64,000 bases of DNA from Metarhizium brunneum (taxonomy: Eukaryota; Ascomycota; Sordariomycetes; Hypocreales; Clavicipitaceae). The stretch is taken from positions 558,001-622,000 of the forward strand of contig NC_089425.1 in the NCBI RefSeq assembly GCF_013426205.1, given 5' to 3'. Of the stretch, positions 6,544-53,098 are shown piece after piece (position 1 is the first letter of the stretch; every line of letters starts with the position of its first letter). The notes beneath the pieces were generated by a model, which ran no database searches, was not told where the DNA came from, and worked only from the letters and a program-made list of their open reading frames with translations. Both the position numbers and the translations under genes were made by a program.

Positions 6544-6569
6544 TTTCATCGTCCATACAAGATTTATTC

Positions 6570-13914: not shown

Positions 13915-15597
13915 ATGTTCAGATTTTCCTTCCACAATTCATCCCGCCCCAAAAAAAAAATGTTTGGCATTATCAACGCATTTCAAATTTCTGCACTGGT
14001 CTTTGTCGCTCTTTACAGCTCGTTGCGACGATGGGATGCGTGGATTATACGTCACTTACAACTCATCGCCCTGAAGTACAGCAATTGTACAGGAAGATGG
14101 CAGATATCTACAAAGGATGTAGTAATCTTGCTGCTCTTTGTGGGCGTTAACATTGGTTTGATGCTGCGCCAAATCAGCCACCTCCCAATCCACCAGTCTT
14201 CTGGCCAGCTCGCGGTTTTGAACATGACCCTGTTATTCCTCGGCGGCAGGACTAACCCACTCGTGGATGTTCTTCAAATATCGGCTGCTACCTTTCAATT
14301 TTATTTTTACTGCGTAGCAGCACTAAGTATCGCACAGGCTCTCATTCACGCGTTCAACACCGCCCAAGGAACGACACAGTTCACAACCGGCGTGATAGCA
14401 CTAGGCTGTGTGCTAGGGTTGATCCTGAGGTACGCAATATCCCACACCGCAGAAAAATGCGGTAAAAGGACTTGCTCAATTTGGATTCGCAAGGTAATGA
14501 GTGTGGGTTGTTGGCCTCTGCCCCCTCTCATTACCATAGCCACGGTTTGGCATTTGAACCAGGTTTCTCTTGAGGAGCAATGGGTTTCTTTGGTAGTAAG
14601 TTTGATTGGTGGACTGCTATGGCTCACATCTGAATTAATTTGGATGTATAACTACTTTCATCACGGTCGTGCAATCGCCACAATGGAGGGACAAGACGGT
14701 CGTGTCTTGAATATTCAGCTGAAGAAGCCCATCAAAGCCAGACCCGGGTATTTCTACATAAGGGCACCCGAGCTGTCGCCTGCGATGCAGAGTCAGCCCA
14801 TCCATATGCTATGGTGGCAGCCAAATGCACCTTCGATACAGCATTTTGCAGTGTTGACCAACCAGGTGAAACGGGCTCCTTCTCTCGGGCGCTTTCCCAT
14901 TCGATTGGATGGACCTTACCAGGAAGACCTGCATTTAGGCAAATATGAGGCCGTGATGTTTGTCGCTCAAGGGCCTGCTCTTTCTCGAGTTCTACCGCAT
15001 CTCCTTTATCTGACCACCAGAATAACGCGAGACAAATTTGCCAAGGTGCAAAGCAATCGGTGGTACCTGGATGGCTTATTCAGTGACAAAACGCGGAAGG
15101 TCGATTTATATTGGAAAATGGATCAAAACGATGACATCTCCTCTGTTAGCGCATATTTCGACGAACTAAGCGACTGCGGAGCTGACAGCAAGGTGCAAGC
15201 TTGGATATTCTACCCTGAAGGTCTTCCAAGACAGACAAGACTTCCAAGGCCAAAAGGCAGGCAACACTGGTTTCCATTTGACGGGGATTTTCTACGACAA
15301 GTGTCTTCAGCGATTGAAACGCAGTCAAAGAGAACACCAGGGCGAGCGAAAGTAGTCAGTAAGTTCATCGCTATCTGGAAACGATGCAAATGCTCCTTCG
15401 CTAACTGTCTAGTTTGTGGTTCCGAAGTGTTCAACTCGACTGTTCGAAGAGACATTAGAAATTACATCCAGGCCGATAACCTGATTAGTCTCAGCGAGCT
15501 GGTCACTATGTCTTGGGCGACAAACGAGAAGGGCAACAAGCAACAGCAAAAGCTCAGGAAGACAGATGTCGGACATGCAGGCCATAGCGAAAAATAG
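13915..15597 (+). CDS. ferric-reductase-like (FRE/NOX family) membrane protein, heme and cofactor motifs altered
   Basis: A single 560-codon frame; starts at 13915 or 13960 (MFGIINA). The layout is that of fungal metalloreductases: five to seven membrane segments (about residues 17-245), a FAD-binding part (about 255-335, ending RLDGPYQEDLHLG), and a NAD(P)-binding part starting VMFVAQGPALSRVLPHLLYL and ending CGSEVFNSTVRRDI. The usual GGRxN segment is present (LGGRTNP). Aligning by eye, the first His of each heme-ligand pair is replaced (Phe131, Cys199), while the second is kept (His145, His213). The HPF(S/T) FAD motif reads QPIH, and the GG.G nucleotide loop reads GPAL. FRE-type genes are common Starship cargo. 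Activity is doubtful. Confidence 0.82.
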   Translation: MFRFSFHNSSRPKKKMFGIINAFQISALVFVALYSSLRRWDAWIIRHLQLIALKYSNCTGRWQISTKDVVILLLFVGVNIGLMLRQISHLPIHQSSGQLAVLNMTLLFLGGRTNPLVDVLQISAATFQFYFYCVAALSIAQALIHAFNTAQGTTQFTTGVIALGCVLGLILRYAISHTAEKCGKRTCSIWIRKVMSVGCWPLPPLITIATVWHLNQVSLEEQWVSLVVSLIGGLLWLTSELIWMYNYFHHGRAIATMEGQDGRVLNIQLKKPIKARPGYFYIRAPELSPAMQSQPIHMLWWQPNAPSIQHFAVLTNQVKRAPSLGRFPIRLDGPYQEDLHLGKYEAVMFVAQGPALSRVLPHLLYLTTRITRDKFAKVQSNRWYLDGLFSDKTRKVDLYWKMDQNDDISSVSAYFDELSDCGADSKVQAWIFYPEGLPRQTRLPRPKGRQHWFPFDGDFLRQVSSAIETQSKRTPGRAKVVSKFIAIWKRCKCSFANCLVCGSEVFNSTVRRDIRNYIQADNLISLSELVTMSWATNEKGNKQQQKLRKTDVGHAGHSEK

Positions 15598-15894
15598 ATC
15601 TAAGATCCATAGATCTATTACTTCTGGGCTACGCTTCAAGCTCTCTAAGTAAAAATTCATTTTCTTAAATATAGAAAACTTAGTTCTTCTGCTGTATTTG
15701 CCACATACCAAGAGCCTCAAGGCCCGCCAGCGTAGACGGGAGGAAGCGCCGCTTTAACTCGGAAAGGACGTGGATCTGAGAGCAGATCTGTCAGACAGAT
15801 TCCAAAATCTGCCAAACTGGAAACGAGAAACTTTTTTAAACCAAAATAAAGTGCTTCTTCATCTAATTAAAGCTGGCTTTCTTTATCCTCTGCA

Positions 15895-16161
15895 TCAAGC
15901 GTCACTCAATGTCATCGGAGTCGGTGTAGTTGGTCGGAAAATGAAACGGCTACGGCGAGGCTGCCTTGTCGGCAAACATCTACAGTTGGCTTTCGCCGGC
16001 GGAAAGGCATAGATCTTCATCTCCAGCTCTTTCACATACTGTTCTAAATCATCCACCCTTTGAATCAATCCGGCACAATTCAAAGCACAGCATTGTTGCA
16101 CGTCAGGGTGGCGCTTAATATCCGAGTGGCCAACAGCAGCCCCGTCAGTTGCCCGCCTCAT
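15895..16161 (-). CDS. small coiled-coil protein candidate
   Basis: An 88-residue frame starting at an ATG (MRRATDG). Residues about 20-55 hold a Cys pair (QQCCALNC) and a heptad-like helix, LIQRVDDLEQYVKELEMKI; the tail is basic (QPRRSRF) then Pro/Thr-rich. No domain is recognised. It sits among other small helical proteins of the same kind, which raises its odds. An upstream exon is possible. Confidence 0.4.
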   Translation of the reverse strand: MRRATDGAAVGHSDIKRHPDVQQCCALNCAGLIQRVDDLEQYVKELEMKIYAFPPAKANCRCLPTRQPRRSRFIFRPTTPTPMTLSDA

Positions 16162-16587
16162 TGTTTCAACAATAGTATCGTCTGCGTCACCCGCTTCAGG
16201 TATGCTTACGAGAAATCGACACAGAGAATGCTACACCTAGTAGCTCAACAGAAATAACGACACCATCTCTTGTATTTATACTTTTTTTGCCCAGGTCCTA
16301 CTGTACCAGTACTACGCACTGCGAACACGTCAGTGACTCTTAACGGTCTATTTTTGGACGATTTTTGATAACAATGCATGGTGTGATTTGTTTCTATTTT
16401 TTGCAGCGGAGCAAAGTTCTTGAAGCGGCGCTTGCAGGATTGCTAGTAGATGTGATTAGGACCAGTCACTAACAGGGGAGCCGACGAATCATAGGTGCCC
16501 GCTGCAGCGCTAGGTATCACCTGTGCCTTCTAATATGGGCCGCCTGACACCTGACGGAAGTGCTAGGACATGGCAAGAGCCTGCGTG

Positions 16588-16595
16588 TATAAATA
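16588..16595 (+). promoter_or_regulatory. TATA box of the 16660 gene
   Basis: TATAAATA 65 bases before the ATG at 16660. Confidence 0.5.
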
Positions 16596-16659
16596 TCGCT
16601 TCATTTCCCTCCACGTCATGGAAACATAAGTCGTAGTAACGCAACTACCGTAGAGTAGG

Positions 16660-17035
16660 ATGGCCGAAAGCAAAGATGCTTATATTCTTCTCGAAGAAGA
16701 GAGAGCGAAGCATGAAGCGACCAAGGCCGAGCTAGAGCAATATCGCAATTGTTGTGAAGGTTGGGAGTCTGCTTACAATGCTTCCTCGGCCATAGTCACT
16801 CAGCTCAGTGCAAAGGTATCCTACCTTGAAAGGATGTTGTGTGCCGCACAAACTCGCCATCTACAGCTCATGACCGAAAACGGCAGACTCAATCTGACGA
16901 TCCGGCATTTAGTATGAAGCATCCCCTCAACAATCTACCATATGAACTAATGTTTCTTAGGCTCCATGGAGTTGGATTAGCATCCCACCAGCGAGCTCTT
17001 GCCCAGCTCTGGAGTCTGAGGATAACGACTACTAA
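16660..17035 (+). CDS. small coiled-coil protein, WESAY family (2 exons)
   Basis: Exon 1 (16660-16911) and exon 2 (16961-17035) flank a 49-base intron (GTATGA donor, ACTAAT branch, TTTCTTAG acceptor) and give 108 residues. Residues 5-84 form an almost unbroken charged helix with heptad spacing, so a coiled coil is likely. The core CCEGWESAYNASSAIVTQLS and AKVSYLE is repeated with close spacing in the protein encoded at 39423-39644 (CCQSWESAYYAAQAQIVQLH, AKVAYLE). These two are paralogues 23 kb apart on opposite strands. A TATA box precedes the gene. The family and function are unknown; oligomerisation is the only role the sequence suggests. Confidence 0.7.
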
Positions 17036-17166
17036 GAGGTGAAAGAAGACGACACAAAGGGGGAAGGTGATCAAAGTGATTGTTAGTAGCCACTTGGTGG
17101 TGGCCAAGGCAAAAATGTGAACAGTAACCGTAATTGTTATTGTAGACCCCATGGTTTCAACTATTC

Positions 17167-17397
17167 TCAGGGATCCTTGGCTTTTGTTGAAGCCACTGCG
17201 GCCTCAATACCTGCGAGCCTGCTTCTCAATGCTTGCACTTCCTTCGAAATTTCGAGGACGTGGGTTAGAACTACCCTGCGCCAGAATCTCGCAGATGCAC
17301 GATTCTGCTCAGAAACGTCCTGTAAATCTTCAGGCATAGATGCATCATTCTCCACCAATGTTAAATGTGCAATCTGACAATCACAACGCTCTCCCAT
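17167..17397 (-). CDS. small helical protein candidate
   Basis: A 76-residue frame starting at ATG 17397 (MGERCDCQIAHL). A longer reading with a GTG start is unlikely in a fungus. The second half is strongly helical with heptads (EISKEVQALRSRLAGIEAAV). A TATA-like TTATATATA lies about 100 bases upstream on the same strand near 17500. No known domain. It fits the cluster of small coiled-coil genes around it. Confidence 0.45.
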   Translation of the reverse strand: MGERCDCQIAHLTLVENDASMPEDLQDVSEQNRASARFWRRVVLTHVLEISKEVQALRSRLAGIEAAVASTKAKDP

Positions 17398-17684
17398 TGT
17401 GACAATAAATTTACCAACTTGCCTTCTGAATATTGATACTAGACTCGGTACGATATGAAGCAAGGCATGAACACCCACGGTCGTTTGTCAACCGCTATAT
17501 ATAATTATTGTCCCAAAGCACATGATCACACAATGCAGTTACTTCACACGGCACTCGGCAACATGCAACAAGTTGTATATTATCTATAGAAACACACCTC
17601 ACTACAAGACATTGAACGGGACACCCAATCGCAACACGATGTCAGACCTGTTGGTGATGACATTTTGTGAGTATCAACCAACAC

Positions 17685-18702
17685 TCACGCCTGAGACTTA
17701 TCTGCACGGCACGCCCCCGTCATAGTTTGTATCACTGTGATGGTTGTAGCGGCAATGGTTGGGCCCAGGGCTGATTTGGTGTTGCCTGCTGTGGAAGAGG
17801 CTGTCTGTGCTGATGGAGTTGTTGTAGTGGGGGCAGCGGTCGTGGGAACAGGCGTGCTAGTGGCTGTACTACTCATGGTGGGATCTGGCAGGGGAACCAG
17901 GGCCAAACAACTTGCAGGATTGCATGTTCCAGGTGTGGTTGGATTAGGTTGCGTTGGCGCTGATGTTCGTGGACCTAGCGTATGCGCCGTGGGGTTGACA
18001 GCGGTTGCAGGCTTAGTATGGTCGGTATTGCTGCCCGGCCAGGTTGGCGCCTTTGACGATCCGTCAGAAGCAGTCTGGTCAAGAAAGAACCTTGTTGTGA
18101 GGCTGGCTACGGCCGTTGTCATGGTAGTCGTGATGGCTATGGTCCCACTAGTCGTCGTCAAAGTATTTGTGACAACGGCCGCGACAGGCTCAACGCACCC
18201 CAAGCGACCCTCCAGGTATCTATTTATGGCTTTTGCGTCACCGCTACCCCGGCTGTTTGCAATCACAGCGCTGTTGCACATCGGCGATGGTTGCCCAACA
18301 CACAACCTTTTACCGTTAGCTGGCATCGAACGGGTGGGATGTTTGACACAAATACCAATGAATGGAGGCAGCGCCGGCCGGGGCTTCGGAGGGAAGGTTG
18401 AATTCGGCAATTTGGCGCCCTGAACAAGCCATTTGCCCAAACTGAACAGTTATTGGCAGAAATTCGTCGTTCTCAAATTGCAGGATTGCTTCGCAAGGGC
18501 CTACACTGTTAGACGCGCTGTCGACGCTGCTCCAAGTTCAGTACGGAAGGCCAAATTTAGAAAGACCGGGAGTATGCACGCACTAAGCAGACACCAATTC
18601 ACCAGCCTTCAGGGGCAGCGGCGGATCAGACTGGCAAATTGTTGGTAAAGTCGCCATGCCAGCGGCAACATTGCATGCTCCAATGATAGTAAAGAACCGC
18701 AT
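17685..18702 (-). CDS. secreted Thr/Ser-rich protein (several exons)
   Basis: The ATG at 18702 starts a signal-peptide-like leader (MRFFTIIGACNVAAGMATLP). A middle exon (about 18520-18380) reads EAILQFENDEFLPITVQFG and APAGAASIHW. An intron with a GTATTT donor and GCTAAC branch joins it to LCVGQPSPMCNSAVIANS. This core resembles small fungal secreted proteins of the form PxGxAxIxWxCxGxxPxCxxAxI, with two Cys after the Trp. The remaining 170 residues are Thr/Ser/Pro-rich, suited to heavy O-glycosylation and possibly a cell-wall or membrane anchor. The first intron, near 18600, could not be placed exactly, so the N-terminal joins are uncertain. Confidence 0.6.
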
Positions 18703-18949
18703 ATTGTGGAGTGTTGAGTGAAGAAGCTCAAAATAGAAGTAGTTTGCAAGCCAGACAGTAGGGCCTCGGGAGAAATTTATAAGTCATTTACGGCCACTGG
18801 TTCTGAGACTTTGATTCTTAAAATTGGGCACTTCAGATCTTTGCAACAGTTCTTCTAGATGCAGGATGCCAGCTCTCTTCCCTAGGCTTTCACTCTAACT
18901 CACTCTCGTTCTGGCTATAAGAGACACCCTGTGCGTGCCCCTGATGACA

Positions 18950-19385
18950 ATGGACAAACTTAACTCACTCAAAATGTACTCCGAATCAGACTTCACACTT
19001 CCTTTTGAGCAGATTTTAGACTGCGGCCTAGCATCCATGGCCCCTGAAGCACCAATGACCGATTCACTTGGGGCTCCGTTGACTTCCGAGAAGCAGTAAG
19101 TGCCACATCCCTAGTAGGTCCGAGAAGCATCCTGATTGGGCAAGTATCCTTCAATGTATACTTCAGAAACTAGAGCACCTCGAGAAGGATGTTGGTCAGA
19201 GTACACGTCTGGAGAAGAGGTTTGATACAGTCGATAGAGAGCTATCAAATAACTCCAGACTTGAGGGGATTGAGAAAGACATTGGAAAGCTGCGAGATTC
19301 CATCAATAGCCTAGCAAATGACTTGAGGAGTTTCTCCGTAGAGGTGAACATGAGGCTCAAGGAAGCGAACTATCCTGCGGAATGA
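18950..19385 (+). CDS. small coiled-coil protein candidate (2 exons)
   Basis: Exon 1 starts MDKLNSLKMYSESDFTLPFE and runs to a good GTAAGT donor at about 19096. Exon 2 (from about 19166) is a clear coiled coil (LEHLEKDVGQSTRLEKRF, then IEKDIGKLRDSINSLANDL), ending at TGA 19383-19385. The obvious acceptor TTCAG leaves the two exons one base out of phase. Either a less obvious acceptor is used or the gene carries a small indel. No known domain. Confidence 0.4.
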
Positions 19386-19502
19386 TGAGATGGTGCGGAA
19401 TCTAGAAATGAAACCTAGGAAACTAGACACTCCTGTAAAGTATATATGTAGGACTATTTCCCTTCGACAGGGCTCGTAGCTGCAAATCCCATAAGGAGCA
19501 CC

Positions 19503-19998
19503 ATGGACCGCCATAAAACGCTGCCTCCAGTACCTACTCGCCAGCAGGACCCTGAGAAACTTGGCTCGTTCTCACCAGAGACATACATCCAATTGCTGGA
19601 AGACGAAAACGAGCAGCTGCGGCTTCGCAACCAAGAATTAATTAAGCAGATGCGTGCATTGGAAGCCAAATTGGCTGCAGAAATACAGATTAAGGCGAGT
19701 TTGTCTGAAAATTTGAAGGAGACGAAGGGTGAAATCAGGCGTCGCGATGAGACCATCGCCAACATTGCAGGAAGAATCGTCCAGGAGTTTCAGCGCTATG
19801 CCGACTCCGTACAAGGTCAGTCTGTGGAAGAAGGATACATTCCGATTGGCTATAGCTATTTCGATTCAAGTTCTTGAAATTAGTTTGAACAAATTTCAGA
19901 TTCTACGAAATAGATCTTAAAATGAACCATTCTCCCCTCCAGGTTCTCAAAACCAAGATGAAAGTCGTAATTATCAGGCAGCATCCAGGGGACAGTGA
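19503..19998 (+). CDS. small coiled-coil protein (probably 2 exons)
   Basis: The frame from 19503 begins MDRHKTLPPVPTRQQDPEKL and continues as a long helix with heptads from about residue 28 to 95 (LLEDENEQLRLRNQELIKQM, AKLAAEIQIKASLSE). An intron 19816-19942 (GTCAGT donor, CTCCAG acceptor) would give 122 residues ending SRNYQAASRGQ. Without it the frame stops at 19877. Function unknown. It lies directly upstream of the MADS-like gene on the same strand. Confidence 0.6.
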
Positions 19999-20121
19999 GT
20001 GACTGGTTGAAACACGCGGACTCATGGCGGCAGGCTACCATATTTTTAGCAACTTCGGGCCGGATCTCAGGGCCGGCGGCTAATTCTTTCGGCGCGACTG
20101 TTTGGACGCGTCCTGTACTAC

Positions 20122-20129
20122 TATATAAA
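20122..20129 (+). promoter_or_regulatory. TATA box of the MADS-like gene
   Basis: TATATAAA 76 bases before the ATG at 20205; it supports that ATG over longer upstream readings of the same frame. Confidence 0.5.
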
Positions 20130-20204
20130 CTCCCTTATGTGCGGTTCCGGTTCTTCAATTCAGCAAACAATTTCCTAGATTCTCAAACAGCTAGAAGGAT
20201 CACA

Positions 20205-20618
20205 ATGAAGACCCCAGTTGACAAACAATGGAAGCAGAGGACATCTGGCATCATGAAGAAGGCACATGGCATGCACTGGACTTTCGGAGTCAAAGTGGCC
20301 CTCTACCTGGAGCGAGACGGTGAGCTATTCGTATACCGCTCTCATGAAGACTTTGCCTGGGAAGCAGCTACCTTCCTGGCAAAGCAAATCCTAACTCCCA
20401 ACGACTTCATAACCCTTGCACAAGACATGAGTTCCAGGCGGGCTCAGCAGTCCACCCCGCTTCCATCATCAGAGCAGGGTCCGCCGCAGACACCAGTTTC
20501 CTCGTCAATTCCCACGCCAGTTTCCACGCCAGGTTCCTCAGAATGTTCAGTCACTGGTTCTAGAGCACCTCGTCGAACAAGGTCACATGCGACAACGCTC
20601 TTTAACATAGCAAACTAG
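20205..20618 (+). CDS. MADS-box-like small protein
   Basis: A 137-residue protein. Residues 8-45 read KQWKQRTSGIMKKAHGM then FGVKVALYLERDGELFVY. This matches the second half of a MADS box: (K)RR.G(L/I).KKA.EL....G..VAL......G.L..Y. The N-terminal KIEIK strand of a normal MADS box is missing. After the domain comes a short helix and a Pro/Ser/Thr-rich tail ending in a basic patch (RAPRRTRS). A DNA-binding role is possible but the truncated domain may only dimerise. It overlaps the 3' end of the convergent patatin-like gene by four bases. A second MADS-like protein is encoded at 43555-43869. Confidence 0.6.
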   Translation: MKTPVDKQWKQRTSGIMKKAHGMHWTFGVKVALYLERDGELFVYRSHEDFAWEAATFLAKQILTPNDFITLAQDMSSRRAQQSTPLPSSEQGPPQTPVSSSIPTPVSTPGSSECSVTGSRAPRRTRSHATTLFNIAN

Positions 20619-22921
20619 ACCAGCCGTGCTACAGTCTCTTGTAAATTATCTATCTGTTCCTTCAATGAAGATTTTGGGTGATCATTCGCGTCTAAACATG
20701 GGAGAAGATCTGTAGGGCAGCTACACAGCTCTCTAGTGCCCGTAGCAAGTGTCCCATTAAGCTTCACAGTGATTATAGATCTTGGAGAATGTAGCAAGAC
20801 TTCCAGGCGTCGCAAAAGCGGTCTTCCGTTCTTCAACCCCTCTAATATCTGATCAGTACACAGGAGGAAATATCTAACTTGACCGCTCTCGTGAAACTGA
20901 ATGTGAACCCTCCTCCTTCGCATCCTCATGGCGATGTCGAGTAAATGTCGTCCCGCGGGCAGTCTACACTTGACCCAAAGTACAAAGCGAGCGGGGAAGA
21001 GATCGTAGAAAGTCGGAATTCCCTCCCTTTGAACATAAAACAGAGCCGATATGAGCTCATTTGCCATGCTCAGCGTCTCCGGGTAATTACTGTTGTGACA
21101 TTGTGTAATTACGTCGATACGGCCATCCGGCCATATGCGATTAGCCTCAATGAAAGCTCGAGCGGCGATGTTGTCGACACCTTGGAACAGAATTGAGAAT
21201 TTTTGCAGCCATTTCGATGATTTTGTAATGTAGTTTTGGCAAATTGCTAGACGGCTGTCTGTATTGTACAAAACCAGCTTTATCTTGGCATCAAGAAGGT
21301 CGCTTCTCGGGAATCTCAACCCTTTGCCAAAAAACAGGCTCTTGTCATCAATCCTAACGCACTTCAGCTTCGGTAGGTGATAAATGCAGTCCTCGACGGT
21401 AGCTTGGTTGCAAAAGATCATTACCATGAAAAAAGCGCCTATGCCGCTCCCCAAGACGAGATCAAAATAATCCTCAAGGCGGCCCGACAGCGACGATCGA
21501 AGATCCTTCAGGAACATTGCGATCGGCAGTGCATCGTCAACGTTTCCATGAAGGTTGAGAACACGAATACCGGCCGAAGGCGGCTTCAGAGCCGTTTGCA
21601 CTGAATTAACAGCTCCGCATAGAACGCAGAAGTGCATCTGGTATATGTCGATGCCCTCTTCGCTTTTCTTGCCGTTGGTCTCCGTGCAATTATCGCATAC
21701 CCTGTGGCCGCATGATAGGGTAGTCGCTGGAAAGCGACAGAGACACACGAGACATAAATCTGTGGGCAACGTAATTTTGCTACTGCATGAAAGTGTACGC
21801 ATCGAGCTTGCTAGAAGTGTTTGTCTTTCCGAGGGTTCGGCCTTCATAAACTGTATAAACAGTGTTCTGACATCTGCTTTAAGAGTTACCGGTTCTATGC
21901 TGCTTAACATGGGCGAATAAAATTCGTCGAACCAGTCGGTGGAAGACAATTCCATTAATTTAGGGTTCAACATACGACCAACTCGCCGTCTATGCTGATA
22001 CGTTTCTAACAAAAGTGAATTGGCTATGGCGCTGCAGGCCGATTCGTAGAGAGTAGCGTCGTGCATTGTCAGGCGGACTAGTTTCTCTGCACCCCATGAT
22101 AGTTGACCTGGCAAGGGGTTTGTGCGCCATGCTTGTTGAAAACTGAAAGTCTTCCGGTGGTCTTCAGCGAACTGTGAACAGGTCGAGCGCAAGAGGTGTT
22201 TCACGTCGCAATTTCGGAATGTTAGGGCTGTGTCATTGTTTCGAGTTGCCTGTGTCCACTCCAAAACATGATCAGCCGACGTTCGCGACCTGCAGCCACG
22301 CATCAGCCGAATTCCTGCAAAGCAACTACGCCATCTCTTCTCTGCCTGACTAAATGAGAGCCCCTCGAGGGGACTGTAGTGTGACATAAGTTCTGCTGCT
22401 AAATCTCGTTCAACGTCTCTCAGAGCAATCTTTGGCTCGTCTTCCGAAACAATTAGCACCTGTGGTCTGCAGCGAATAGAGGAAGCAAATGACAGGTCCA
22501 CCCAACGAGCCAAGACTCCCACAATGGTGAGAATATCCCAGTAATCGTTCTGAATGAAGACCACGGCTTCGCAGAGCGGAGACAGAGCCCTGGCATAAAA
22601 CTCGTGGGCAAGGTCCTCGGGGCAGCCGTACGATTCTACCTGTCTTCTGGTCAAATTTGGCGGACAAGGGCCTGCCTTCATCGCAGGGTATGACTTCTGA
22701 TGATGAAGGTGGCAATCCAGCAGAATCGTCTTGGCAAATCGGCACATGCGAACTTGTCTGGGTGCTTCTGCCCCGCTACATCCCCCCGTGCAAAACAACA
22801 AAAGCAGTTTGGCCTGCCCATCGGGCCGATTGTCAAAGCTCTGATAGGGCTGATGGAATTCCTGAAGCACAGGCGTCCTGAAGTCATTGCCGCCTCGCAC
22901 AATGTCAATCCAGGCCGACAT
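20615..22921 (-). CDS. patatin-like (PLP) protein with zinc finger, catalytic residues lost
   Basis: A single 768-residue frame. The N-terminal 380 residues have no recognised motif. A zinc-finger-like segment follows at about 389-435 (CLVCLCRFPATTLSCGHRVC, DNC, CVLC), then the patatin part starting GIRVLNLHG at about 451. In active patatins this is followed by G-rich DGGG.RG, the nucleophile GxSxG and a DG(G/A) dyad Asp. Here the glycine loop reads LHGNVDD, the nucleophile site reads GSGIG (residues 491-495, no Ser at the middle position) and the DG site before EANRIWPDGRIDV is absent. The frame is long and intact, so the protein may be kept for a non-enzymatic role. PLP genes are recurrent Starship cargo. 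Confidence 0.8.
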   Translation of the reverse strand: MSAWIDIVRGGNDFRTPVLQEFHQPYQSFDNRPDGQAKLLLLFCTGGCSGAEAPRQVRMCRFAKTILLDCHLHHQKSYPAMKAGPCPPNLTRRQVESYGCPEDLAHEFYARALSPLCEAVVFIQNDYWDILTIVGVLARWVDLSFASSIRCRPQVLIVSEDEPKIALRDVERDLAAELMSHYSPLEGLSFSQAEKRWRSCFAGIRLMRGCRSRTSADHVLEWTQATRNNDTALTFRNCDVKHLLRSTCSQFAEDHRKTFSFQQAWRTNPLPGQLSWGAEKLVRLTMHDATLYESACSAIANSLLLETYQHRRRVGRMLNPKLMELSSTDWFDEFYSPMLSSIEPVTLKADVRTLFIQFMKAEPSERQTLLASSMRTLSCSSKITLPTDLCLVCLCRFPATTLSCGHRVCDNCTETNGKKSEEGIDIYQMHFCVLCGAVNSVQTALKPPSAGIRVLNLHGNVDDALPIAMFLKDLRSSLSGRLEDYFDLVLGSGIGAFFMVMIFCNQATVEDCIYHLPKLKCVRIDDKSLFFGKGLRFPRSDLLDAKIKLVLYNTDSRLAICQNYITKSSKWLQKFSILFQGVDNIAARAFIEANRIWPDGRIDVITQCHNSNYPETLSMANELISALFYVQREGIPTFYDLFPARFVLWVKCRLPAGRHLLDIAMRMRRRRVHIQFHESGQVRYFLLCTDQILEGLKNGRPLLRRLEVLLHSPRSIITVKLNGTLATGTRELCSCPTDLLPCLDANDHPKSSLKEQIDNLQETVARLV

Positions 22922-23344
22922 GATGGAAGAGTTGCTGGCCGCTGTCGAGGCTCCGCCGGCGGATCGCTGGCTGAAATATCTGCTTGCGCGTCTGTTATCT
23001 GATATCTATGTTCTCGGATACTCGTGCTTCGCAAGTTGCAAAGCTAGAATACGTAATCTTGGAACCACGATTCACCGCTGCCATCTGGCTGTCCAATTGC
23101 AAATTCATACAGCTGACTACCTGCGATGTCCGGTATGGGAACCCCTCATTGTATTTACCTAACAAGTCCCATTTCTTCCCCTTAAATGTAGCCTGTGCAT
23201 CATTTCCATCATATCCCTGTCGTTTGGGGGTTCATCTGAGGGTCGAGTTGCCCAACTTCCCCGGCCTCTGGGATCCGGCACAGGGCAACATGCTTTGAAA
23301 CCATGTTTTCTGATCCGTTTTCTCATGGCACTTTCACTATGGGC

Positions 23345-23527: not shown

Positions 23528-23625
23528 AGAAGGTGCATTCATTTGTACAGAACTGTTAGTTATAGGTTTGCCAGTTATTAGTACTAGCAATAATACAGAT
23601 GACATCCAATTCAAATCATTTCTAG

Positions 23626-39420: not shown

Positions 39421-39422
39421 AA

Positions 39423-43869: not shown

Positions 43870-44040
43870 ATGATGATTTATCTCAAGGAAGCAGTGCAGT
43901 AATCATAGTTTGACTTTTTTTTTATTATTTAATGAATATCGAGACAAAACCTTTGCATCTTCTTGGTGCGACGGAGCGTAAACAAGTTGTATATAGAGCT
44001 TCCTAGCGATTGTGCTTGGTGTGTCTAGTCATCAGCGCTT

Positions 44041-44598
44041 CTACGGATTTCGGATATAAGCACAGAGTTCGAGGGCTATATCCACACTACTCCGGCATCC
44101 TTTAGTAGCATGGTTATCATTGGGGTCATTATAGACGTTGGGACAAACGTCGTCACAGCTAGAAGGGCACAATACCCCAGGACAGTCGCTGGCGGAGGTA
44201 TGCAGGGCAACACCATAGGCGCAAAACTGCCTCGGGAATTCATCGTTAATGTCTGATAGATCATAGTACAGATCCGTAGGGTGCTGCGAAGGCACGTAAG
44301 AATACTCCAGCTGTGTCTTGGAGCTAGATGCAAAGGCGTTTGCACGGCCTACATCGGTCAAGGTTTTGCCAACGCAGATGTCGCTCGTAATTTTAATGGA
44401 TACACCGGTTCCGTTTTCGACAGGGCGGTATGTCTCAACGTAAGTGTCTCCCGGAGGCAATTCTAGTACAAATGGAGATGTCGCTTGGACCGAAGCAAGA
44501 AACACAGAGAAGGGGCAGCGATTGATTACAATCGCGTGTCCTAAAGCATGGGCATGCCACGAACAACAGAGAAGTGCAATAATAACCGGGAGCCCTGA
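44041..44598 (-). CDS. secreted BYS1/thaumatin-like protein
   Basis: From ATG 44598 a signal peptide (MSGLPVIIALLCCSWHAHA) is followed by GHAIVINRCPFSVFLASVQ and LELPPGDTYVETYRP. This is the start of the BYS1 family (yeast-phase-specific, thaumatin-like secreted proteins): AxVxNxCxxPVYLxSV... then LPPGxSYSExYR. Later YSYV and LYYDLSDIND match the family, and the Cys-rich end (QFC, DCPGVLCPSSCDDVCPN, GCRSS) gives pairs for disulfides. An upstream in-frame ATG at 44634 is possible. Likely extracellular; function of the family is not settled. Confidence 0.75.
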   Translation of the reverse strand, partial: SGLPVIIALLCCSWHAHALGHAIVINRCPFSVFLASVQATSPFVLELPPGDTYVETYRPVENGTGVSIKITSDICVGKTLTDVGRANAFASSSKTQLEYSYVPSQHPTDLYYDLSDINDEFPRQFCAYGVALHTSASDCPGVLCPSSCDDVCPNVYNDPNDNHATKGCRSSVDIALELCAYIRNP

Positions 44599-45041
44599 CA
44601 TCGCGCAGGTAGCAAAGAGAATACAATGGTGCAAATATGTCTAATAAACAGTGTTGAACTTATTGGTAAAGCTGCGCTAATCGTTGATGACCGAATCTTT
44701 CTGGGCACTGCCTTTTTCTAGATTTTAACGGTGCGTTGTGCAAGAAAAAGGACATTGTGGATTGAAACGTGACCAAAGGCGCACGACGTGGGATCCTGGG
44801 TCTTGAACCTCGGATGTGAAATCCGAGTTCCTAAGTCCAAAGCTGTAGATCCATGACCTCAAATCCCGCCGATTGCTAAATTGTATAGACTCGTGGAGAG
44901 TCTATCGACAACCTTCCGTGAGGATTCTCACATACGAAACCCGTCAAAAATTGTCAATGCTGTGACTTCTGGTGCTTTGCATCTTTGTATTGACGATATT
45001 ATCTTCGGGCTGTAGCGTCAACGCACCACACGCGAATAATC

Positions 45042-45780
45042 ATGCTCTGGAAGGAATTGCCAGTCGAGGTGCACATCATAATCACCGATTACTTAGATCC
45101 TAGGTCTGCTGCAATAGTTCGGTTGCACCTGCATTGGCAACTATCCAAATGGAACCAGCAGCGCATGCGCCAACCGAGAGTATGGGGCAGTATCTTCAAG
45201 CCCGGAGTCAATTTAGAAAGCATAATATCGGAACTACGTCGCTGTTCTATTGAACCAATCAGCCAGTGACCTCCTGTTGCTTGGCATGGATCTAGATCAT
45301 CTGTTCTTTGCCAAACCAAAACTCCAATCGGATCCTCTGATTGTAGTACTGCTGGTATTTGTTGGCGGTCGATTTATACCATGCCCCCCCGGTATTTACA
45401 GGCACTTACGCAATCAAGAGCATCTTGATGGCTCGTTAACTGATGTTGGGGCAGTTCACATTCGTCCTACTAGTCATAACATGCAGGCGGCGCAAGATGA
45501 ACTTCTACTGCAACTCTCCCCTACAATGCACGCGAAGAGGCTTGGCTGGATCGGAGGACTCGAAACTCGGGCATTATCCTTGTGGGACAACGAGCTACAC
45601 ACTGTAAAACTTACTTCTGAGTCTGACCCTATTCTGTCATATTCTAATTCAGGACTCAGATGGACAATGGGATATCAATCTCGTATTGAGATAGGAAAGA
45701 CCTGGATTACATTAGAAGGGGTCACTCTAGAGAGCCCAAGCATGGCCGAGGGTCAACAGCCTATAGCAGATATAGAATAA
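45042..45780 (+). pseudogene. F-box-like gene with a frame change
   Basis: The frame from 45042 starts MLWKELPVEVHIIITDYLDP, an F-box-like helix, and stops at 45269 after RRCSIEPISQ. The next frame, from 45250, continues coherently (DLDHLFFAKPKLQSDPLIVV, then 120 more residues to 45780) and has the composition of an F-box C-terminal part. The two overlap by about 20 bases, so a single small indel near 45255 would join them. No good splice pair explains the change. It is a decayed gene or a sequence error. Confidence 0.5.
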
Positions 45781-46664
45781 GATAGGCTGTTGATTGCGAG
45801 GACCAGTGACTGTCGGCTGAGTGAATTCGGCTTGCCGCTCTTCGCCGAGGACAGCGTCTATTGTTGGAACGTGTGCGCGGAGAGGCTGCATATGGAGCGG
45901 GGAGGATGATGGAAGCGAGGCAATGGGGACAGCTTGACAGGAGGAGGGGGATAAGACTCGAGTGGTGAAAGATGATCGGCGGCAATACAGGCGTAATGAT
46001 AGGCTAGCTATTGGCCGGCAAACCGCCTTGAACCAGTGCCAAGTAGGACGGTGCTTGGGCCGCGATTTTGATACAGCGCTAAACGACGAATATGAGTGGT
46101 GTCGAGTGCGCCGGTTGCGGGACTAAGGAGACGGGATTTAGGAAACAAGATTCAGGAGACAAGATTTAAGATTCAGCAAAGGTCCTGTGTTCGAAGCATG
46201 CTTCCTGTCATGCCACTTACAATCGCGGCTTGCTCGGTGGTCCACAAACTCAATGGCTCGACGTTATAGGCAGAAAGATGAGGCCCTGGACGAAGAATTA
46301 CGTAGAATTTGCCTCATCTAAGCCTCATCTAAGACTAGATTCTTAAGACGGGATTTACAGGTTTGAGCGGCAAGCTATGCCAAGCTTGACATTCCTAGAT
46401 GGGTTGTTTCTCTGGAAACGCATTTGTGACTTGGACACAATCTCCAGGCCGGCTTGACGAAGTAGATCCGCATGGCCATTTTTCTTTTTCGAGGTTATCT
46501 ATAACTATGGTACAATTGACTTAAGGGCGGCATAAAAATATTGGCATTATTACACTCTTGTTACCTGTGATGAAGAAAACCATTGTGATTTGGGTGCATG
46601 AGAGGGTCATCTCTTGTCTTTGCTATCTCACAAAGCTCGGCTTGTCTTATTCTTCGAAAGGAGT

Positions 46665-47229
46665 CTAAGGTTTCTGTTTGAGCCTTCGCAACAACACATA
46701 CTTGAATATGAGAAAAAGTGTCACAGAGCAAAGGAACAGTGACCCGGTGACAGTTGCTGTTGTAATCGCGGAAACTGACCACTGCCCACTTGCCGTACCA
46801 TACACATTAATAAATGTTGACACGAAGCCCATTGCCGTATGCGTTATGATAGGGCTGCGCCGGATTAGATTTGCCAAAAGCTTTACAGAGAGTGTGTACT
46901 TACATAACAATTTGGTTGTTCACCCAAATGTAGTTACGCCGCAATTTCCACCACAAGCAGACGAGCCCAATTGCAGACACCGCACAGAGAAAAATAGCGA
47001 TACAAAGCAGTGGGATACTCAATATAGAGCCCATCACAACCTTGGAGATGTCACCGGTTTGATCTAGTACATGAAAACGTATAGAGGAATAGGTGCTAGG
47101 CGAAATTAGAAAGCCGGCAAGCAAAAGCCATGACAAAAATCCTGCAACAACGGAGTAACGCAAGCCGATACTCTCTTGCATCTCAAGCAGCATTTGATCA
47201 TACTTCGTCAAAGAAGTTTTGCGACCCAT
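46665..47229 (-). CDS. four-helix membrane protein (2 exons)
   Basis: Exon 1 (47229-46904) and exon 2 (46854-46665) join across a 49-base intron (GTAAGT donor, GCGCAG acceptor) to give 171 residues. Four hydrophobic segments are visible: VVAGFLSWLLLAGFLI, VVMGSILSIPLLCIAIFLC, MGFVSTFINVYG and TGSLFLCSVTLFLIFKYVLL. The loop YGTASGQWSVSAI between the last two resembles a conserved loop of small fungal membrane proteins that I cannot name. The tail is basic (RRLKQKP). Function unknown. Confidence 0.68.
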
Positions 47230-47687
47230 GTTATACGATTTCTTGCTGTATCGCTAAGCTCTCAAAATACCCCCCAAAAAAGGAGTTGTGCACTTGGTTT
47301 GAACGGTAAAAGGGATATAAGCCTTAACAAACAGGACCAACAGCTAACATCCTAACCCAAATTTTAGAACAGATATCTGAATTCTAGCATCGCGAATTGC
47401 AGTTGTTCGTTTATTCGTTTATTGGCACTAGATGGATCCATTTGTCACTGACGGCGAGACAATGAGGCTGCACTTGCAGTGTTAATGCTTAGTAGCTACT
47501 TCAGATACGCATTCTTAGATCCAGCATTGAAGATTCGGGGCCTGACAGAGCTCTGGGTTCAAATCACAAGTTCTCACCATGGACACCCAATAGGTCCATT
47601 CTAAATACTTAAATACCCAAAGGAACGTAATGAACTCATCCAGCAATTAGATACACCCACTCAAGACCTATTCAAGACGTGTTCAAG

Positions 47688-48275
47688 ATGACCATTTCTT
47701 GCCAGCTAATAACCCATGAAGGCCAGCCCATTGACGGCGTTTTTGTGGAGCTCAATTGTATGGACTTCCCAGAACAACACTTTAGTGGACTTTCTGACAA
47801 CTTGGGCATGATAGACGAATGGATTAGCGTTCGTGATCAAAAAGTCCAATGTGTTCAGTGCACCCCGAACATGGACGGTTCGCATTTGCAAATGCGCTTT
47901 CTGCCAACCCGTTTTTGGCGAAACGTTCCCAGAAGCTTGGAACACAATTTGGGTACCGCAGCAAGAGAATTCTCACTTTGTCTTCCACGTTAACGGAGAC
48001 ATGTATGCGATTATCAAGAACGGTGCTTCGCATGTTGAGACACCACGAACTGGCTCGCGTAGTCTGACGTTCAGCTTCGGCCCCTGTGGACTGAAGGACA
48101 ACAATTCACTAGGCCTGCACCCACCCGGGTTCAACTTTGGCACCTCAGGACCTTTCGAGAGAAGACGTGGGTTTAAGAGAAAAGTGACCAGAAGTGAAGC
48201 CACTGATGAAACCCCTCAGCAAGAGGGTAGTAACCACAGCATCTGAGGCGCTCAGCTAGGCTTGCTACGCCGTAA
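47688..48275 (+). pseudogene. decayed paralogue of the transthyretin-like gene
   Basis: The copy starts MTISCQLITHEGQPIDGVFV and matches the 40041 protein (MTISCQVNTLYDEPLEGIFV) through GMIDEWI and LQMRF. It then loses five bases relative to the other copy between 47902 and 47926, moving into another frame that reads FPEAWNTIWVPQ and FHVNGDMYAI. The end that matches RRSARL in the other gene (QHLRRSARLATP, stop at 48273) lies back in the first frame, so a second, compensating shift occurred near 48235. Two shifts indicate decay, not a splice. Confidence 0.7.
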
Positions 48276-48794
48276 ATACCCTCCATTTTGCAGAACTAGT
48301 GTAGCACAGTGTATGTACCTTGTGAAGTCGTAGTCAACCAGCCGATATGTAGAGGTATGATCCATAATCTTAACAAAATAAAATACAAAATACAAAAAGC
48401 GCGAAATGGAAACATACTAGCTCAATAGGTCTCCAATCACGGACATGTATGTAACAGCATGAGACACGATGACTTGTGTCGCGACCTTAGAACTTTGATC
48501 TAGTAAACCAGAGTGGCGATCTTAGTCGTCTGCGGGTCATCGATGTCTTCTTCTGATGTAAAATATACTTGCTCCCCATGAACATTGAACAAACATACTC
48601 ATCAACCAAGCAGTACATACGAAAGCCTTGGTGCTTGGCTTTGTCATGGGTGGGATCAGCAGGTCTCAGATCTCAGAACTCGGATGTTAATAGCCTCCCA
48701 GTCTCCCCATCTATGTGGCCGTCTTGCAGCTGGGGACCCATTGACACTAGACTCGTATCGCGGATGCACTCAACCTAGCATCGCGGGCACCTCC

Positions 48795-49175
48795 ATGGAG
48801 ATCGACGCGCTCGTAAAGATTTTTGCTGCCCTCAGTCTGAGTGACAACGAGGATGAGGTTGCCCGGAGGCGTCTGCGCTGCATCCTTTGTGGAAAGGGGT
48901 TTCAAAAGAGTAATGACCTCACCCGCCATATGGAAGGGCCACATCGGAGGGCTGGAAACTCCATCTACTGCTGCAGGGATGGTCACTATCGGACAGCAAG
49001 GAAAGGAAGTTACGAAAGACATCTTCGTAAATGCAAGGTAAAGAAAATTTCTAGTGGATTGTTCCGTTGCCACTGCGGAGAAGCGGACGTCGATGAGGCA
49101 AACCATGTTAGTCACATTCGCAAATGCAGGCGTGGGAAAAACGCTTCCAGCTCATGCAAGGAGAAAACTGAATGA
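48795..49175 (+). CDS. C2H2-type zinc-finger protein
   Basis: From ATG 48795 (MEIDALVKIFAAL) the frame gives 126 residues. A classic C2H2 finger, CILCGKGFQKSNDLTRHMEG followed by PH, is followed by two finger-like units: CCRDGHYRTARKGSYERHLR(KC) and FRCHCGEADVDEANHVSHIR(KC). The order resembles fungal C2H2 proteins with one good and two divergent fingers. The tail is Ser/Lys-rich. A degenerate copy lies at about 53905-54170. Likely nuclear; target unknown. The frame is open upstream to 48585, so an earlier start cannot be ruled out. Confidence 0.7.
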   Translation: MEIDALVKIFAALSLSDNEDEVARRRLRCILCGKGFQKSNDLTRHMEGPHRRAGNSIYCCRDGHYRTARKGSYERHLRKCKVKKISSGLFRCHCGEADVDEANHVSHIRKCRRGKNASSSCKEKTE

Positions 49176-49403
49176 CACGAATACCGAGAGGCCCCGCATC
49201 ACGTAATCGGCATGCCACCCAGCCACCACTTCATGGGATAAAGGTTTGCATACGAGCTTAATTAAGGATAATAAAGGATAATAGGATAATTTACTGGTCC
49301 TGTTGTGGGAGGTTTGAAGTTTAATGATACAAAATTTCTCTCGCACTGAACATGCGTGCGGCTATTAGCGACACTTATAGAGTAAAGCTTTGTGGATAGA
49401 GAC

Positions 49404-49480
49404 GCTGTGGACAGTGTGACGCCGTGGGACAGTGTGACGCCGTGGGACAGCGTGACGCCGGGGACAGTGTGACGTTGTGA
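49404..49480. repeat. about four tandem copies of a 19-20 base unit
   Basis: Units of the form GGACAGTGTGACGCCGTG repeat about four times, with the later ones worn (GACGTTGTGAGG). Confidence 0.75.
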
Positions 49481-49554
49481 GGGAACCAGCGAGATAGCGG
49501 GTGCTCCTAGTGCACCCCCGCATCAGCCACTCCATCTCTGGAAAGATTATAAGA

Positions 49555-49860
49555 ACGCTACCTGTGAAAAGACCGTCTCTGTAAACGTTATCGCTGAAAA
49601 ATTAATCTCCGATAAGTCCATCTTTGAAAACACCGTCTATGAAACACCATTTCTGAAGGCGGGTAAGGTAATCTCTGCAAAGGTCGTCCGTGAAAAGGCC
49701 CCCTCCGTAAACGCTATCGCTGAAGAGGCAATCTCTGAGAAGCCCATCTTCGAAAACACCAGCCGTGAAAACACCATTTTTGGAGGCGGATAGGGTCATC
49801 TCCACAAAGGCCACCTCATCAAGAAGGCAACCTCCAAAAATGCACCCCCAAGAACCCATC
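49555..49860 (-). repeat. nested 15-base repeats inside a roughly 130-base tandem duplication; pentapeptide-like reading
   Basis: Two blocks (about 49561-49690 and 49691-49810) are near copies of one another. Each is made of roughly 15-base units of the form TCTSTGAAAACRCC. On the minus strand an 85-codon frame reads as five-residue steps (GVFEDGLLRD, GGGLFTDDLCRD, GVFKDGLIGD), similar in look to pentapeptide repeats. No promoter or start context is clear. It may be a simple repeat that happens to stay open because the unit is a multiple of three. Confidence 0.5.
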
Positions 49861-50283
49861 TTTAAGGACTCGTATGCAAATTCTCAGTTCTTAAAACTCG
49901 GCTCCTAGAATGAGGCCGTTGCAATGATGGCCTTGGGTGGAGCAGGCGCATTTACATATTCAATAGTAGTAAGGTCAATTTTCGAAGCAAGGCTTTCTTT
50001 TAAACAAAAACAAATGGAAGCTGGCTCAAAAGAAGCAACAGGCGACTAGAGAAGCCAACCTACGCTACCGAGATCTACTTGTTCCTTGGGATGTTGATAT
50101 ACATGTCCATCCATGTCGAACCACGCTTGGAGCACTATTGGAGGGCTGCTCCAACTAATCCAGTGCACACAATTAACAGAGCCCACAGAAAATGCTCTCG
50201 CTTGCAGTGGTATTATTTACCAACGGCTTGTAACTGAAGCCTTAGGTATATACATGTACATATTAACTGCGGAGACGTCGAAA

Positions 50284-53098
50284 CTAATCTCGAACCCGTC
50301 GCAGCTTCCCAGTCAATTTCTTGAGCGTCCTTCGTTTCTTGGTCGTCGAAGGATTAGGTGGCTCTGTGCTGAGCGCGGATTGAACAAGACGTAGACTTTC
50401 CGCCGCCCGACACGTACGGGGATGCTCCTCCCAAGAATTCGCTTTCTCTTCTCAAGCACCTCCCTCAGCATTAGTGCTGTTTCATCTAGTTTGCCTTGGT
50501 CACCTAGCATAATTGCAAGGTTATTCATCGCCGAGATTGTATCCGGATGCTCATCGCCAAGAATCCGCTGTCCTTTCTCAAGCACCTCATTTTGTGACAA
50601 TGCAGCTTCGTTCCAGCGTCCAATCTCTGCGAAAAAAATATCAAAGCTTTCCACAGCCTCCAGCAAACCAACTTGGTCCCTGTCAAATACTGTTGAGGCC
50701 CTCCTAAAGCTTTGGACGTTGTCTACTAGAGTGACACAACTCGCAGCTTTGAGGCAGGCCCAGCCTTACGATCACCAATAACCTTCAGGTAATTATTGAG
50801 CAACTGTGAGGCAGCGTACCAAAAGCGCTGCACTCGTTCGTCGCTTTGTAGTCGATCGTAGCCCCAGGCATGTACAAGGCGGTGAATTGAGTATGAGGTT
50901 TGTCTCATCTTATGCTGGCAGAGCGAGTATTTCTCCAGAAGCTGAAAACATTCCTCCAAGTGAGGGAGGTCCACCCCATTTTGGCACCCTAAAATTAATG
51001 TCCATGGTGCGACCGTTGTTGAACATGAATCAATGCCTAAGCAGAAAAGCTCAAGGAAGATGTCTTCATAGTGAATAAAATACAACAACGTGAGAAGGCG
51101 GGATGCTTCCGGGAGGTGCCTGGACACCGCCGAGTAAGACGTCTCCCACACTGTCATAACGCTATGGTCATACCTTGCAACGAGTTCATCTGGCGTTTCC
51201 GAGAGCAGCTTCGGTCGATGGCGATGGAATTCATCAAGATATACGGATAAATTAGATGACAGCCGCGGGGTCTGTGACACATATTTTCCAGCCATGCTGA
51301 TTGCCAGTGCAAGGCACCCTAGCTCATGCACAATGAGTTTGGCTTCAGCTACCACATCATTACGTGATGGTTGTATCTCTGCGCAATTTAGGAACAGTTC
51401 GACACTTTGTGACTCTTCAAGTCCCCCAACAGAAACCCCTTCGAACGTCGACATAGATCTTGCGATAGATGCTCGACTAGTAATGATAATATGTATATTA
51501 GGGGATCCTGGAATGTATTCAGACAGCGCCACAAAACTTTTGTCTTTTTGGTGCAGATAATCGGCACCGTCGAAGACGATAAGAAACTTTCCAGAAGCTC
51601 TAGTAAACCAGCTGAGTACTTCTCTCTTCACATCATCAGGACTCGGATTGCATAGTAGTGTAGTAGGATCTGCTAGTAGTCGGTATATAGCCAGGAAATC
51701 TCGGTCGATAGATGCCGGTTGTTCCGCTTGAATCCAGAAGGTGGCACCATACTCCGTTCGAAAACGCTGCAGGTAGCTCAGAGCTAGCTGTGACTTTCCC
51801 GCTCCTCCCATACCCCATACACCTACCTTCTTTACCTCCCCTTGTCTATTGGGGCCGAGGGGTCTTACGAGCTGATTTCGGATGCTATCACGAAGAGTTG
51901 TTCGCTGAACAAACGTCTTCACTGGTGTAATTGAGCTCAATGGATAGCTCGGTATGTGACTACGTTCTACAGGAGAGGACGCTAGTCAGTATTCAGTATT
52001 CGCGACTAGAACATGACAGAGCAAGTGATTGTAGCTGAGAAGAACAAAGACTAACTTGTCTAATCTATCTTCAAAGCGCGCTCGACCTCTTCCTTGATTG
52101 TGCTCAAAACTAACTCGCACGCGAGGCTTTTTGCGGACTCGAATTTGCAAATGGTACTGTGATCAGCGTGCATGAGTATCTGTTTCTCACGCGTACCTTG
52201 TAGATTCTATGTAGCAGATTTCTTGTCAACGATCTATCGGGAGTCAGCACGATTGCTTTTGTAGGTTCATTCGCTTGACCTACAATGCCCATCTTGCCAT
52301 ATTCATATCCTTCAAAGAAGTTAACGACAAGACATTTCTCATATACATGGCGAGATTGCTCGGATCGTTTGGTCGCTTCGTTCGAGGTTTTCTTTAGGGC
52401 TTCAAGGAGGTCATTGCTTGGCTTTACCATGCTTTTTCTTACTATTTTGGCCACAATATCACCAACAGTAGCATAATTCCCGCCTTGCTGAGGGGTGGCA
52501 AAGAAAACGAGAAGACGCGTCGCCTCGACGATAGGTCTGTATGATACGTCTAATGTGGCTGAGACGAGTGCCTATAGGGCATTAGCATTGGTTATTGGGC
52601 ATAAAAGCCAGCACTCACCTCTTTGACGACCAATCCACCCAGACTATGGCAAATGAACACGAGAGGTTTCTGTGGATCAGTCTGCGTTGGTCAGGACAGA
52701 GCCCGAATTCAAATATGGCTAGTCGCTTGGGGGAATACCTTCCGCCTCAGATTAAGCCATTGTAGCGAATTTTTCGCGTGGTCATCGAGTTTGATAGCCG
52801 CTGCACCAACGGCAGGGCTCGAGTTATATTCGAACATCATCTCCCTGATGGGTCTGGAAAGGGCACCAGGGAGGAAATCATTAAGCCAGAGCTTATCGCC
52901 CATCGTCCATGTTTTTCGAGCGTGCTCATCGGTGTTCTTAAAGCTGAGGCCGTGGACTGCGACAACGCTAGTGGAATGATCTGGTTAACATTGCACGGCT
53001 ACAGGTGTGTGACGTAGAACATACTCTAGCTTGGCCACTCGGTGGGGGTGGTCATCGTAGACGCTGTCGAAGATGACTTTCAGACCAGGTTGAATCAT
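50284..53098 (-). pseudogene. NOD-like receptor: alpha/beta-hydrolase + NB-ARC + TPR, decayed
   Basis: From ATG 53098 the joined exons show an alpha/beta-hydrolase (VVAVHGLS, LWLNDFLPGAL, LVFICHSLGGLVVKE, LLVFFATPQQGG), an NB-ARC domain (51940-50726: Walker A GMGGAGKS, kinase-2 FLIVFDGAD, IIITSRA) and a TPR region (ILGDEHPDTISAMNNLAIML). This is the layout of fungal NLRs, which act in non-self recognition. Breaks: a TAG at 52207-52209 within the hydrolase end, a shift before RFEDRLDK near 52075, a one-base loss at about 50730 after KLRVVS, and another at about 50428 before EEHP. NLRs are a recurrent Starship cargo family. As it stands only the hydrolase and the NB-ARC frame could be made. Confidence 0.8.

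What the first reader, a model, noticed from the sequence alone, without database searches (positions are those of the whole stretch)
13915..53098. FRE, PLP, two DUF3723 and an NLR together: a Starship-like cargo set without a visible captain
The sequence shows a ferric-reductase-like gene (13915), a patatin-like gene (20615), two DUF3723 paralogues (24869, 27847) and a fungal NLR (50284). These four families are the accessory genes repeatedly reported in giant Starship transposons of Pezizomycotina. Finding all four within 40 kb is hard to explain by chance. I saw no DUF3435 tyrosine-recombinase frame, so the captain and ends are presumably outside the window, or this is a captain-less derivative.
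Basis: partly seen in the sequence, partly recalled or inferred. Interest (0 to 1): 0.88.

Follow-up and report, generated by a model that had tools for sequence, protein, structure and literature searches.

The report
Giant fungal transposon, possibly swapped captain
The window lies inside a 138,000-base "Starship" jumping element of an insect-killing fungus, whose driver gene and both ends lie just outside the window; a second element on the same chromosome carries much of the same cargo under a clearly different driver gene, which suggests that such elements trade drivers and cargo.

Summary
The window (G000:C4:558001-622000; by size Metarhizium brunneum ARSEF 4556) lies wholly inside a Starship, element A, C4:517089-655303, 138,215 bp. 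[quoted passage not shown] The ends carry an imperfect inverted repeat (AAAAA-GACGGC) and a 6-bp direct repeat TTAAAG. The flanks are two halves of one AT-rich dispersed repeat; three of four copies fetched show the uninterrupted site. The window holds two DUF3723 genes, an NB-ARC/TPR NLR, a divergent ferric-reductase-fold gene and a patatin-named gene without patatin HMM match. A second, inverted element B (C4:792470-917608, 125 kb) has identical terminal motifs. A and B share about 25 kb of cargo at 96-97% and the 3' terminus at 99%, but captains and one further 5' stretch are only 78-79% identical (captain dS 0.88); the captains fall into two supported clades (A with M. anisopliae/M. humberi, B with M. 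acridum). One divergence time cannot explain both, so modules were probably exchanged between elements: a case with defined ends for the published question whether Starships swap captains. Strain polymorphism and activity were not testable.

The parts
1..64000 (-). Interior of Starship element A (C4:517089-655303); captain-to-3' direction runs right to left
   Evidence: ends at C4:517089 and 655303; window is C4:558001-622000
13960..15597 (+). Ferric-reductase/NOX-like membrane protein, divergent
   Evidence: no Pfam match at E<=0.01
20615..22915 (-). Patatin-like (PLP) protein by name of its Pochonia relative; no patatin HMM match; nucleophile Ser reads Gly
24869..27016 (-). DUF3723 gene 1
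   Evidence: PF12520 E 7.8e-83
27847..29754 (-). DUF3723 gene 2
   Evidence: PF12520 E 8.5e-79
50313..52960 (-). NLR: TPR, NB-ARC, and upstream N-terminal frames with FICHSLGG motif (outer limit approximate)
13404..20000 (.). 97% identical to element B (C4:849700-856327, inverted)
33858..44537 (.). 96% identical to element B (C4:823520-834132)
48068..51913 (.). 97% identical to element B (C4:819643-823522); the match ends inside the NLR gene between N-terminal frames and NB-ARC
44538..48067 (.). 3.5 kb present in A, absent at the corresponding place of B
   Evidence: B matches meet at C4:823520-823522
53792..53925 (+). captain-derived fragment, inverted relative to the captain, 85%
54900..56180 (.). 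AT-rich patch (GC 0.178 in 55001-56000) inside the element
56398..57453 (+). C-terminal part of a PIF1-like helicase; the N-terminal part lies at C4:649593-651125
   Evidence: DNA matches of 92% and 89% between the two places

Best explanation
The window is the interior of a 138-kb Starship (element A), a captain-driven giant DNA transposon. Shown by sequence: a DUF3435 gene first at the 5' end, defined termini, a 6-bp direct repeat, a paralogous empty site, the accessory genes, and a second element B with the same termini. Inferred: the captain, a tyrosine recombinase, cuts the element out at its ends and inserts it at CTTTA(A) in AT-rich repeats. Also inferred, less surely: A and B exchanged parts. 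Two old, selectively constrained captain lineages now head elements with nearly the same cargo, so a 5' module (captain plus at least 10 kb) and 3' cargo were joined by recombination between elements, most likely before A inserted where it is, because A's two flanks still read as one site.
For: Captain: PF11917 over the genome, 733-aa five-exon model without stops. Ends and direct repeat. Empty site: 3 of 4 repeat copies fetched match the left flank (89-94%) and go on into the right flank; joined flanks align with 471/502, 469/503 and 441/498 matches. Element B with identical end patterns. DUF3723 loci 5 of 5 downstream of DUF3435 genes. Mosaic: captain 79% and A 644525-645701 78% against 96-97% cargo and 2 mismatches in 162 aligned bases at the 3' end; captain dS 0.88, dN/dS 0.09; two captain clades, A's 100/99, B with M. 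acridum 100/100.
Against: The empty site is a paralogous repeat, not another strain. One of the three copies (L038) does not keep TTAAAG exactly, the joined flanks need a 4-base gap near the junction, and the fourth copy (L040) resembles the others only near it. B's direct repeat matches in 5 of 6 bases (CTTTAA, CTTTAT). FRE and PLP matches are weak. Most of B was not read: identities come from capped searches, and window 20001-33857 gave no B match although B has the DUF3723 pair. Other stretches are 89-93%, and at C4:554926-558000 A is nearer to C1 (98%) than to B (93%), so the history has more than one step. The close match ends at an AT-rich palindromic sequence in B, which may be a later insertion or deletion and not the exchange point. 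The reversed control patterns also gave 2 and 3 hits.
Confidence: 0.85

Rival explanations
1. Element A is composite: one Starship inserted into or fused with another, so that its outer 5' end and its cargo come from different elements without homologous recombination.
For: Captain-derived fragments inside A at C4:611792-611925 (85%) and 639347-639501 (92%); an AT-rich patch at window 54.9-56.2 kb close to where the close match to B ends; nested Starships are reported (PMC12289983, passages).
Against: A and B also share a non-captain 5' stretch at 78% in the same element orientation, so the 5' modules look homologous and diverged; the two end patterns found no third end inside A.
Confidence: 0.25
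2. Intrachromosomal crossing-over between the inverted elements A and B flipped the 137 kb between them and so swapped captains after insertion.
For: A and B are inverted on one chromosome with 5' ends facing each other.
Against: A's two flanks read as one site with matching TTAAAG repeats; a flip would have mixed the flanks. Flanks are repeat sequence, so this is not proof.
Confidence: 0.08
3. Gene conversion or repeated duplication made the cargo of A and B alike after both were in place, the captains simply being older.
For: Graded identities of 89, 93, 96-97 and 99% along the elements.
Against: Needs long tracts; it is itself an exchange between elements, only of cargo and not of captain. 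Cannot be told apart with the data in hand.
Confidence: 0.3
4. Chance clustering of common fungal families beside a solo DUF3435 gene; no element.
For: Solo DUF3435 genes are common (PMC12134995, passages); FRE and PLP matches are weak.
Against: Two elements with the same end motifs, direct repeats and shared cargo and the paralogous empty site.
Confidence: 0.02

Closest known systems
Starship superfamily, e.g. Sanctuary of Bipolaris sorokiniana (PMC12506042, passages seen)
   Same: DUF3435 captain first at the 5' edge; NLR, PLP, FRE and DUF3723 accessory genes; a 6-bp sequence at the ends present in empty sites; 100-200 kb size
   Different: Different host class and cargo; here the empty site is paralogous, and a second element on the same chromosome shares cargo but not the captain lineage
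Cargo exchange between Starships of different families (ssf cluster; PMC11623301, passages seen)
   Same: Near-identical cargo under distant captains, read as inter-Starship recombination
   Different: There captains are about 16% identical in amino acids and in different families; here both captains are 86% identical, with the same end motifs, in one genome
Captain-swap question of Hill and colleagues (PMC12134995, passages seen)
   Same: Alike elements with different captains; asks whether Starships swap the captain
   Different: Their examples had no predicted flanking repeats; A and B have ends defined by motifs and direct repeats

Membership tests
[quoted passage not shown]
   ATG 442 bp inside the 5' end
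Starship | direct repeat (target site duplication) at both ends | tested here: met
   TTAAAG at C4:517083-517088 and 655304-655309; element B 5 of 6 bases
Starship | terminal inverted repeats (present in some Starships) | tested here: met
   imperfect, GAAAAAGACGGC and TATTAAAAACGACGGC
Starship | size and cargo genes | tested here: met
   138,215 bp; cargo
Starship | accessory families DUF3723, NLR, FRE, PLP | tested here: met
   DUF3723 and NLR by Pfam, FRE by distant homology and fold; PLP by name only
Starship | empty site / presence-absence between strains | not testable with these tools
   only a paralogous empty site in the same genome
Starship | transposition by the captain | not testable with these tools
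   intact model and dN/dS 0.09 between captains A and B are indirect
Patatin-like phospholipase (PLP) | patatin domain match with Ser of GxSxG | tested here: not met
   no PF01734 at E<=10; GSGIG in the alignment. Filed as patatin-like by relative's name only
Ferric reductase (FRE) | PF01794 match and heme-binding His pairs | tested here: inconclusive
   no PF01794 match itself; relatives with PF01794; NOX-like fold of a weak model; H130 and H198 kept in 6 of 6 rows, another His of relatives replaced, by my reading

The most novel reading that the evidence does not exclude
Captain exchange is a real process by which Starships keep cargo and 3' terminus while taking a new recombinase module: on one chromosome, elements A and B carry nearly one cargo under two captain lineages, one otherwise found in M. 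anisopliae and M. humberi and one in M. acridum. Captain and ship would be separately inherited modules.
Probability: 0.5. Interest if true: 0.75.

Novelty: new member of a known kind. Interest (0 to 1): 0.6.

Why it matters
It turns a guess from gene content into a Starship with defined ends in a biocontrol fungus for which my library searches turned up no Starship report (limits given in the report). The pair A/B gives a case with known ends for a question put in print in 2025, whether Starships can swap captains, and says where to look in other strains. It also shows that copies of the target repeat in the same genome can stand in for a strain with an empty site when ends are sought.

Tried and rejected
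First guess for the 3' end at C4:549206, where three matches to other loci stop together: rejected, because B, C1 and C7 go on matching each other past that point. The end was found from the AT-rich repeat instead.

Window 20001-33857 gave no B match in the DNA search although B has the DUF3723 pair; left open. An apparent identity break at window 13404-13427 proved to be an 87-base indel in the stretch read from B.

Structure prediction of the PLP-like protein failed (pLDDT 30) and was not searched. Profiles of the PLP-like and FRE-like alignments found nothing convincing among solved structures by sequence. NCBIfam gave no match for the FRE-, PLP- and DUF3723-like frames. Paper searches gave nothing on this locus beyond the Starship papers cited. 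Two Starship papers were not held, so I cite them for nothing.
Full report
Observation. The window has the genes described. Two frames are strong DUF3723 members and the minus-strand gene near 50-53 kb is an NB-ARC/TPR NLR, with a FICHSLGG region upstream (lipase-like by recall). The 'FRE' has no Pfam match at E<=0.01; 2 of its 5 database relatives carry PF01794, and its weak model resembles NADPH oxidases. The 'PLP' rests on a 60%-identical Pochonia protein called patatin-like; no patatin model matches and the nucleophile position reads Gly (my reading). No DUF3435 gene lies in the window.

Where it is. The window is G000:C4:558001-622000. If C4 is chromosome 4, it was assembled telomere to telomere without further resolving (PMC7842015, one section read).

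Captain and ends. DUF3435 gives 17 matches, which I group into 11 loci. One lies 30 kb right of the window on the minus strand, C4:652442-654861; its model has five exons, 733 aa and no stop. BLAST homology with the second C4 captain ends at 655330, where AT-rich sequence begins. That flank belongs to a dispersed repeat. I fetched four repeat copies across the junction. Three of four match A's far left flank up to C4:517087-517089, at 93.9, 93.9 and 89.0% over 444 to 453 bases, and go on into the right flank; the fourth (L040) resembles them only near the junction. So element A sits in this repeat: TTAAAG, 138,215 bp, TTAAAG. The joined flanks align to the three copies with 471/502, 469/503 and 441/498 matches and 8, 5 and 4 gap columns; a 4-base gap lies near the junction, and TTAAAG itself is intact in two of the three. 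Reading inward the ends are GAAAAAGACGGC and TATTAAAAACGACGGC.

Second element. The 3' end pattern (up to 3 mismatches) has 4 hits, 2 without mismatch and 2 with three; the 5' end pattern (up to 2) has 6 hits, 2 without mismatch, 2 with one and 2 with two; the reversed controls gave 2 and 3 hits. The exact hits are A and element B, C4:792470-917608, inverted, with CTTTAA and CTTTAT at its ends. The one-mismatch hits are a 5' end at C6:4150199, 5 kb from the contig end and beside a captain, where 2.1 kb after B's captain match at 94%, and an orphan 5' end at C2:7464950.

DUF3723 and captains. The genome has 7 DUF3723 genes at 5 loci. All 5 lie downstream of a DUF3435 gene, at 13.7, 21.8, 24.4, 46.2 and 66.5 kb; a random locus does so within 70 kb with p 0.0167. 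The limit was set after the fact and only about three loci are independent.

Mosaic. From the captain end on, A and B match at 79.4% over the captain stretch and 78% at A 644525-645701; at 97% over window 51913-48068, 96% over 44537-33858 and 97% over 20000-13404; at 89% over window 13427-11363 and 4502-2605; at 93% and 89% over C4:558000-554926 and 554922-549206; and with 2 mismatches in the 162 bases aligned without gap at the 3' end. At C4:554926-558000 A is nearer to C1 (98%) than to B. In C4:538001-548000 only short matches or matches under 70% fall in B; 517-538 kb was not searched. Searches scored only part of their candidates, so absence of a match is weak evidence. Captain proteins are 86.3% identical (629/729), dS 0.88, dN 0.08, ratio 0.09. 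In a tree of 41 proteins (A, B and 39 of 158 hits, picked mainly from the top of the list) A falls with M. anisopliae and M. humberi (100/99) and B with M. acridum (100/100); the clade of B with the Pochonia captains has 95/94. B's captain is 98.1% identical to that of M. acridum, a distant congener by recall, which hints at horizontal transfer; not tested. One age for A and B does not fit 3% and 21% divergence, so exchange between elements is the simplest reading. The place of exchange is not shown: the close match ends inside the NLR gene, where B has AT-rich palindromic sequence in place of A's N-terminal frames.

Other cargo of A. Near the captain are an HMG-CoA reductase (C4:642826-644019; 96% copy at C3:4641411) and a terpene synthase (C4:647889-649037). 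Further: a reverse-transcriptase/integrase frame of Gypsy type, an integrase-core frame, an ankyrin protein with an SsdA_C-like end, a fungal protein kinase, an APH-like frame and transcription-factor pieces. Of 40 frames scanned had no Pfam match at E<=0.01. These 40 are a choice from the longer frames, not a gene annotation.

Literature. The library holds open-licence PubMed Central papers only. 'Metarhizium' with 'Starship' gives 5 papers, of which I looked into one (PMC12289983); of its 2 mentions of Metarhizium the passages showed one, in its reference list. The other four I saw as listings. The M. brunneum comparison PMC11457142 has no occurrence of Starship or DUF3435 in its main text. 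Searches (11 of 11 listed; 10 of 26 listed) added none by title. So I found no report of this element, within these limits. Accessory genes and a 6-bp repeat agree with Sanctuary (PMC12506042, passages). Cargo exchange is published (PMC11623301, passages) and captain swap is posed as a question (PMC12134995, passages).

Verdict. A new Starship with defined ends, a new member of a known kind. That part is near certain in my view; the exchange of captain and cargo is the interesting part and remains an inference. The stated confidence covers the two together and leans on the first.

Noticed in passing
C1:8996-9059 kb and C7:2473-2538 kb (L036, L037): A second related pair: both carry a stretch like A's C4:549-558 kb, a DUF3723 gene and a weaker DUF3435 match; 99% identical to each other over 987 bases read. 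[quoted passage not shown]
   Followed up: partly
C4:642826-644019 and 647889-649037 (L011): HMG-CoA reductase and terpene synthase 4 kb apart near the captain of A, perhaps a terpene pathway as cargo; the reductase has a 96% copy at C3:4641411-4643958.
   Followed up: partly
C4:623536-624495 (L009): Ankyrin-repeat frame with a match to SsdA_C (deaminase toxin C-terminal, E 1.2e-8) inside the element.
   Followed up: no
window 39936-40676 and 47634-48246: Two related frames beginning MTISCQ, the second inside the 3.5 kb that A has and B lacks; they share a 42-base repeat at 86%.
   Followed up: no
window 27151-27665: Tandem repeat of 92 bases, 5.6 copies, between the two DUF3723 genes.
   Followed up: no
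C4:655.4-667 kb, 512-517 kb, 789-792 kb: Blocks with GC as low as 7-15%, into which A and B are inserted; likely repeat-induced mutation, not tested.
   Followed up: partly
C4:548081-548221, with copies at C4:545064, 667299, 880936 and C7:2439685, 2479262: A 140-base dispersed repeat in and near these elements, 87-95% identical.
   Followed up: no
C2:7464950: Orphan 5' element end without a DUF3435 match nearby, 13 kb from the contig end.
   Followed up: partly
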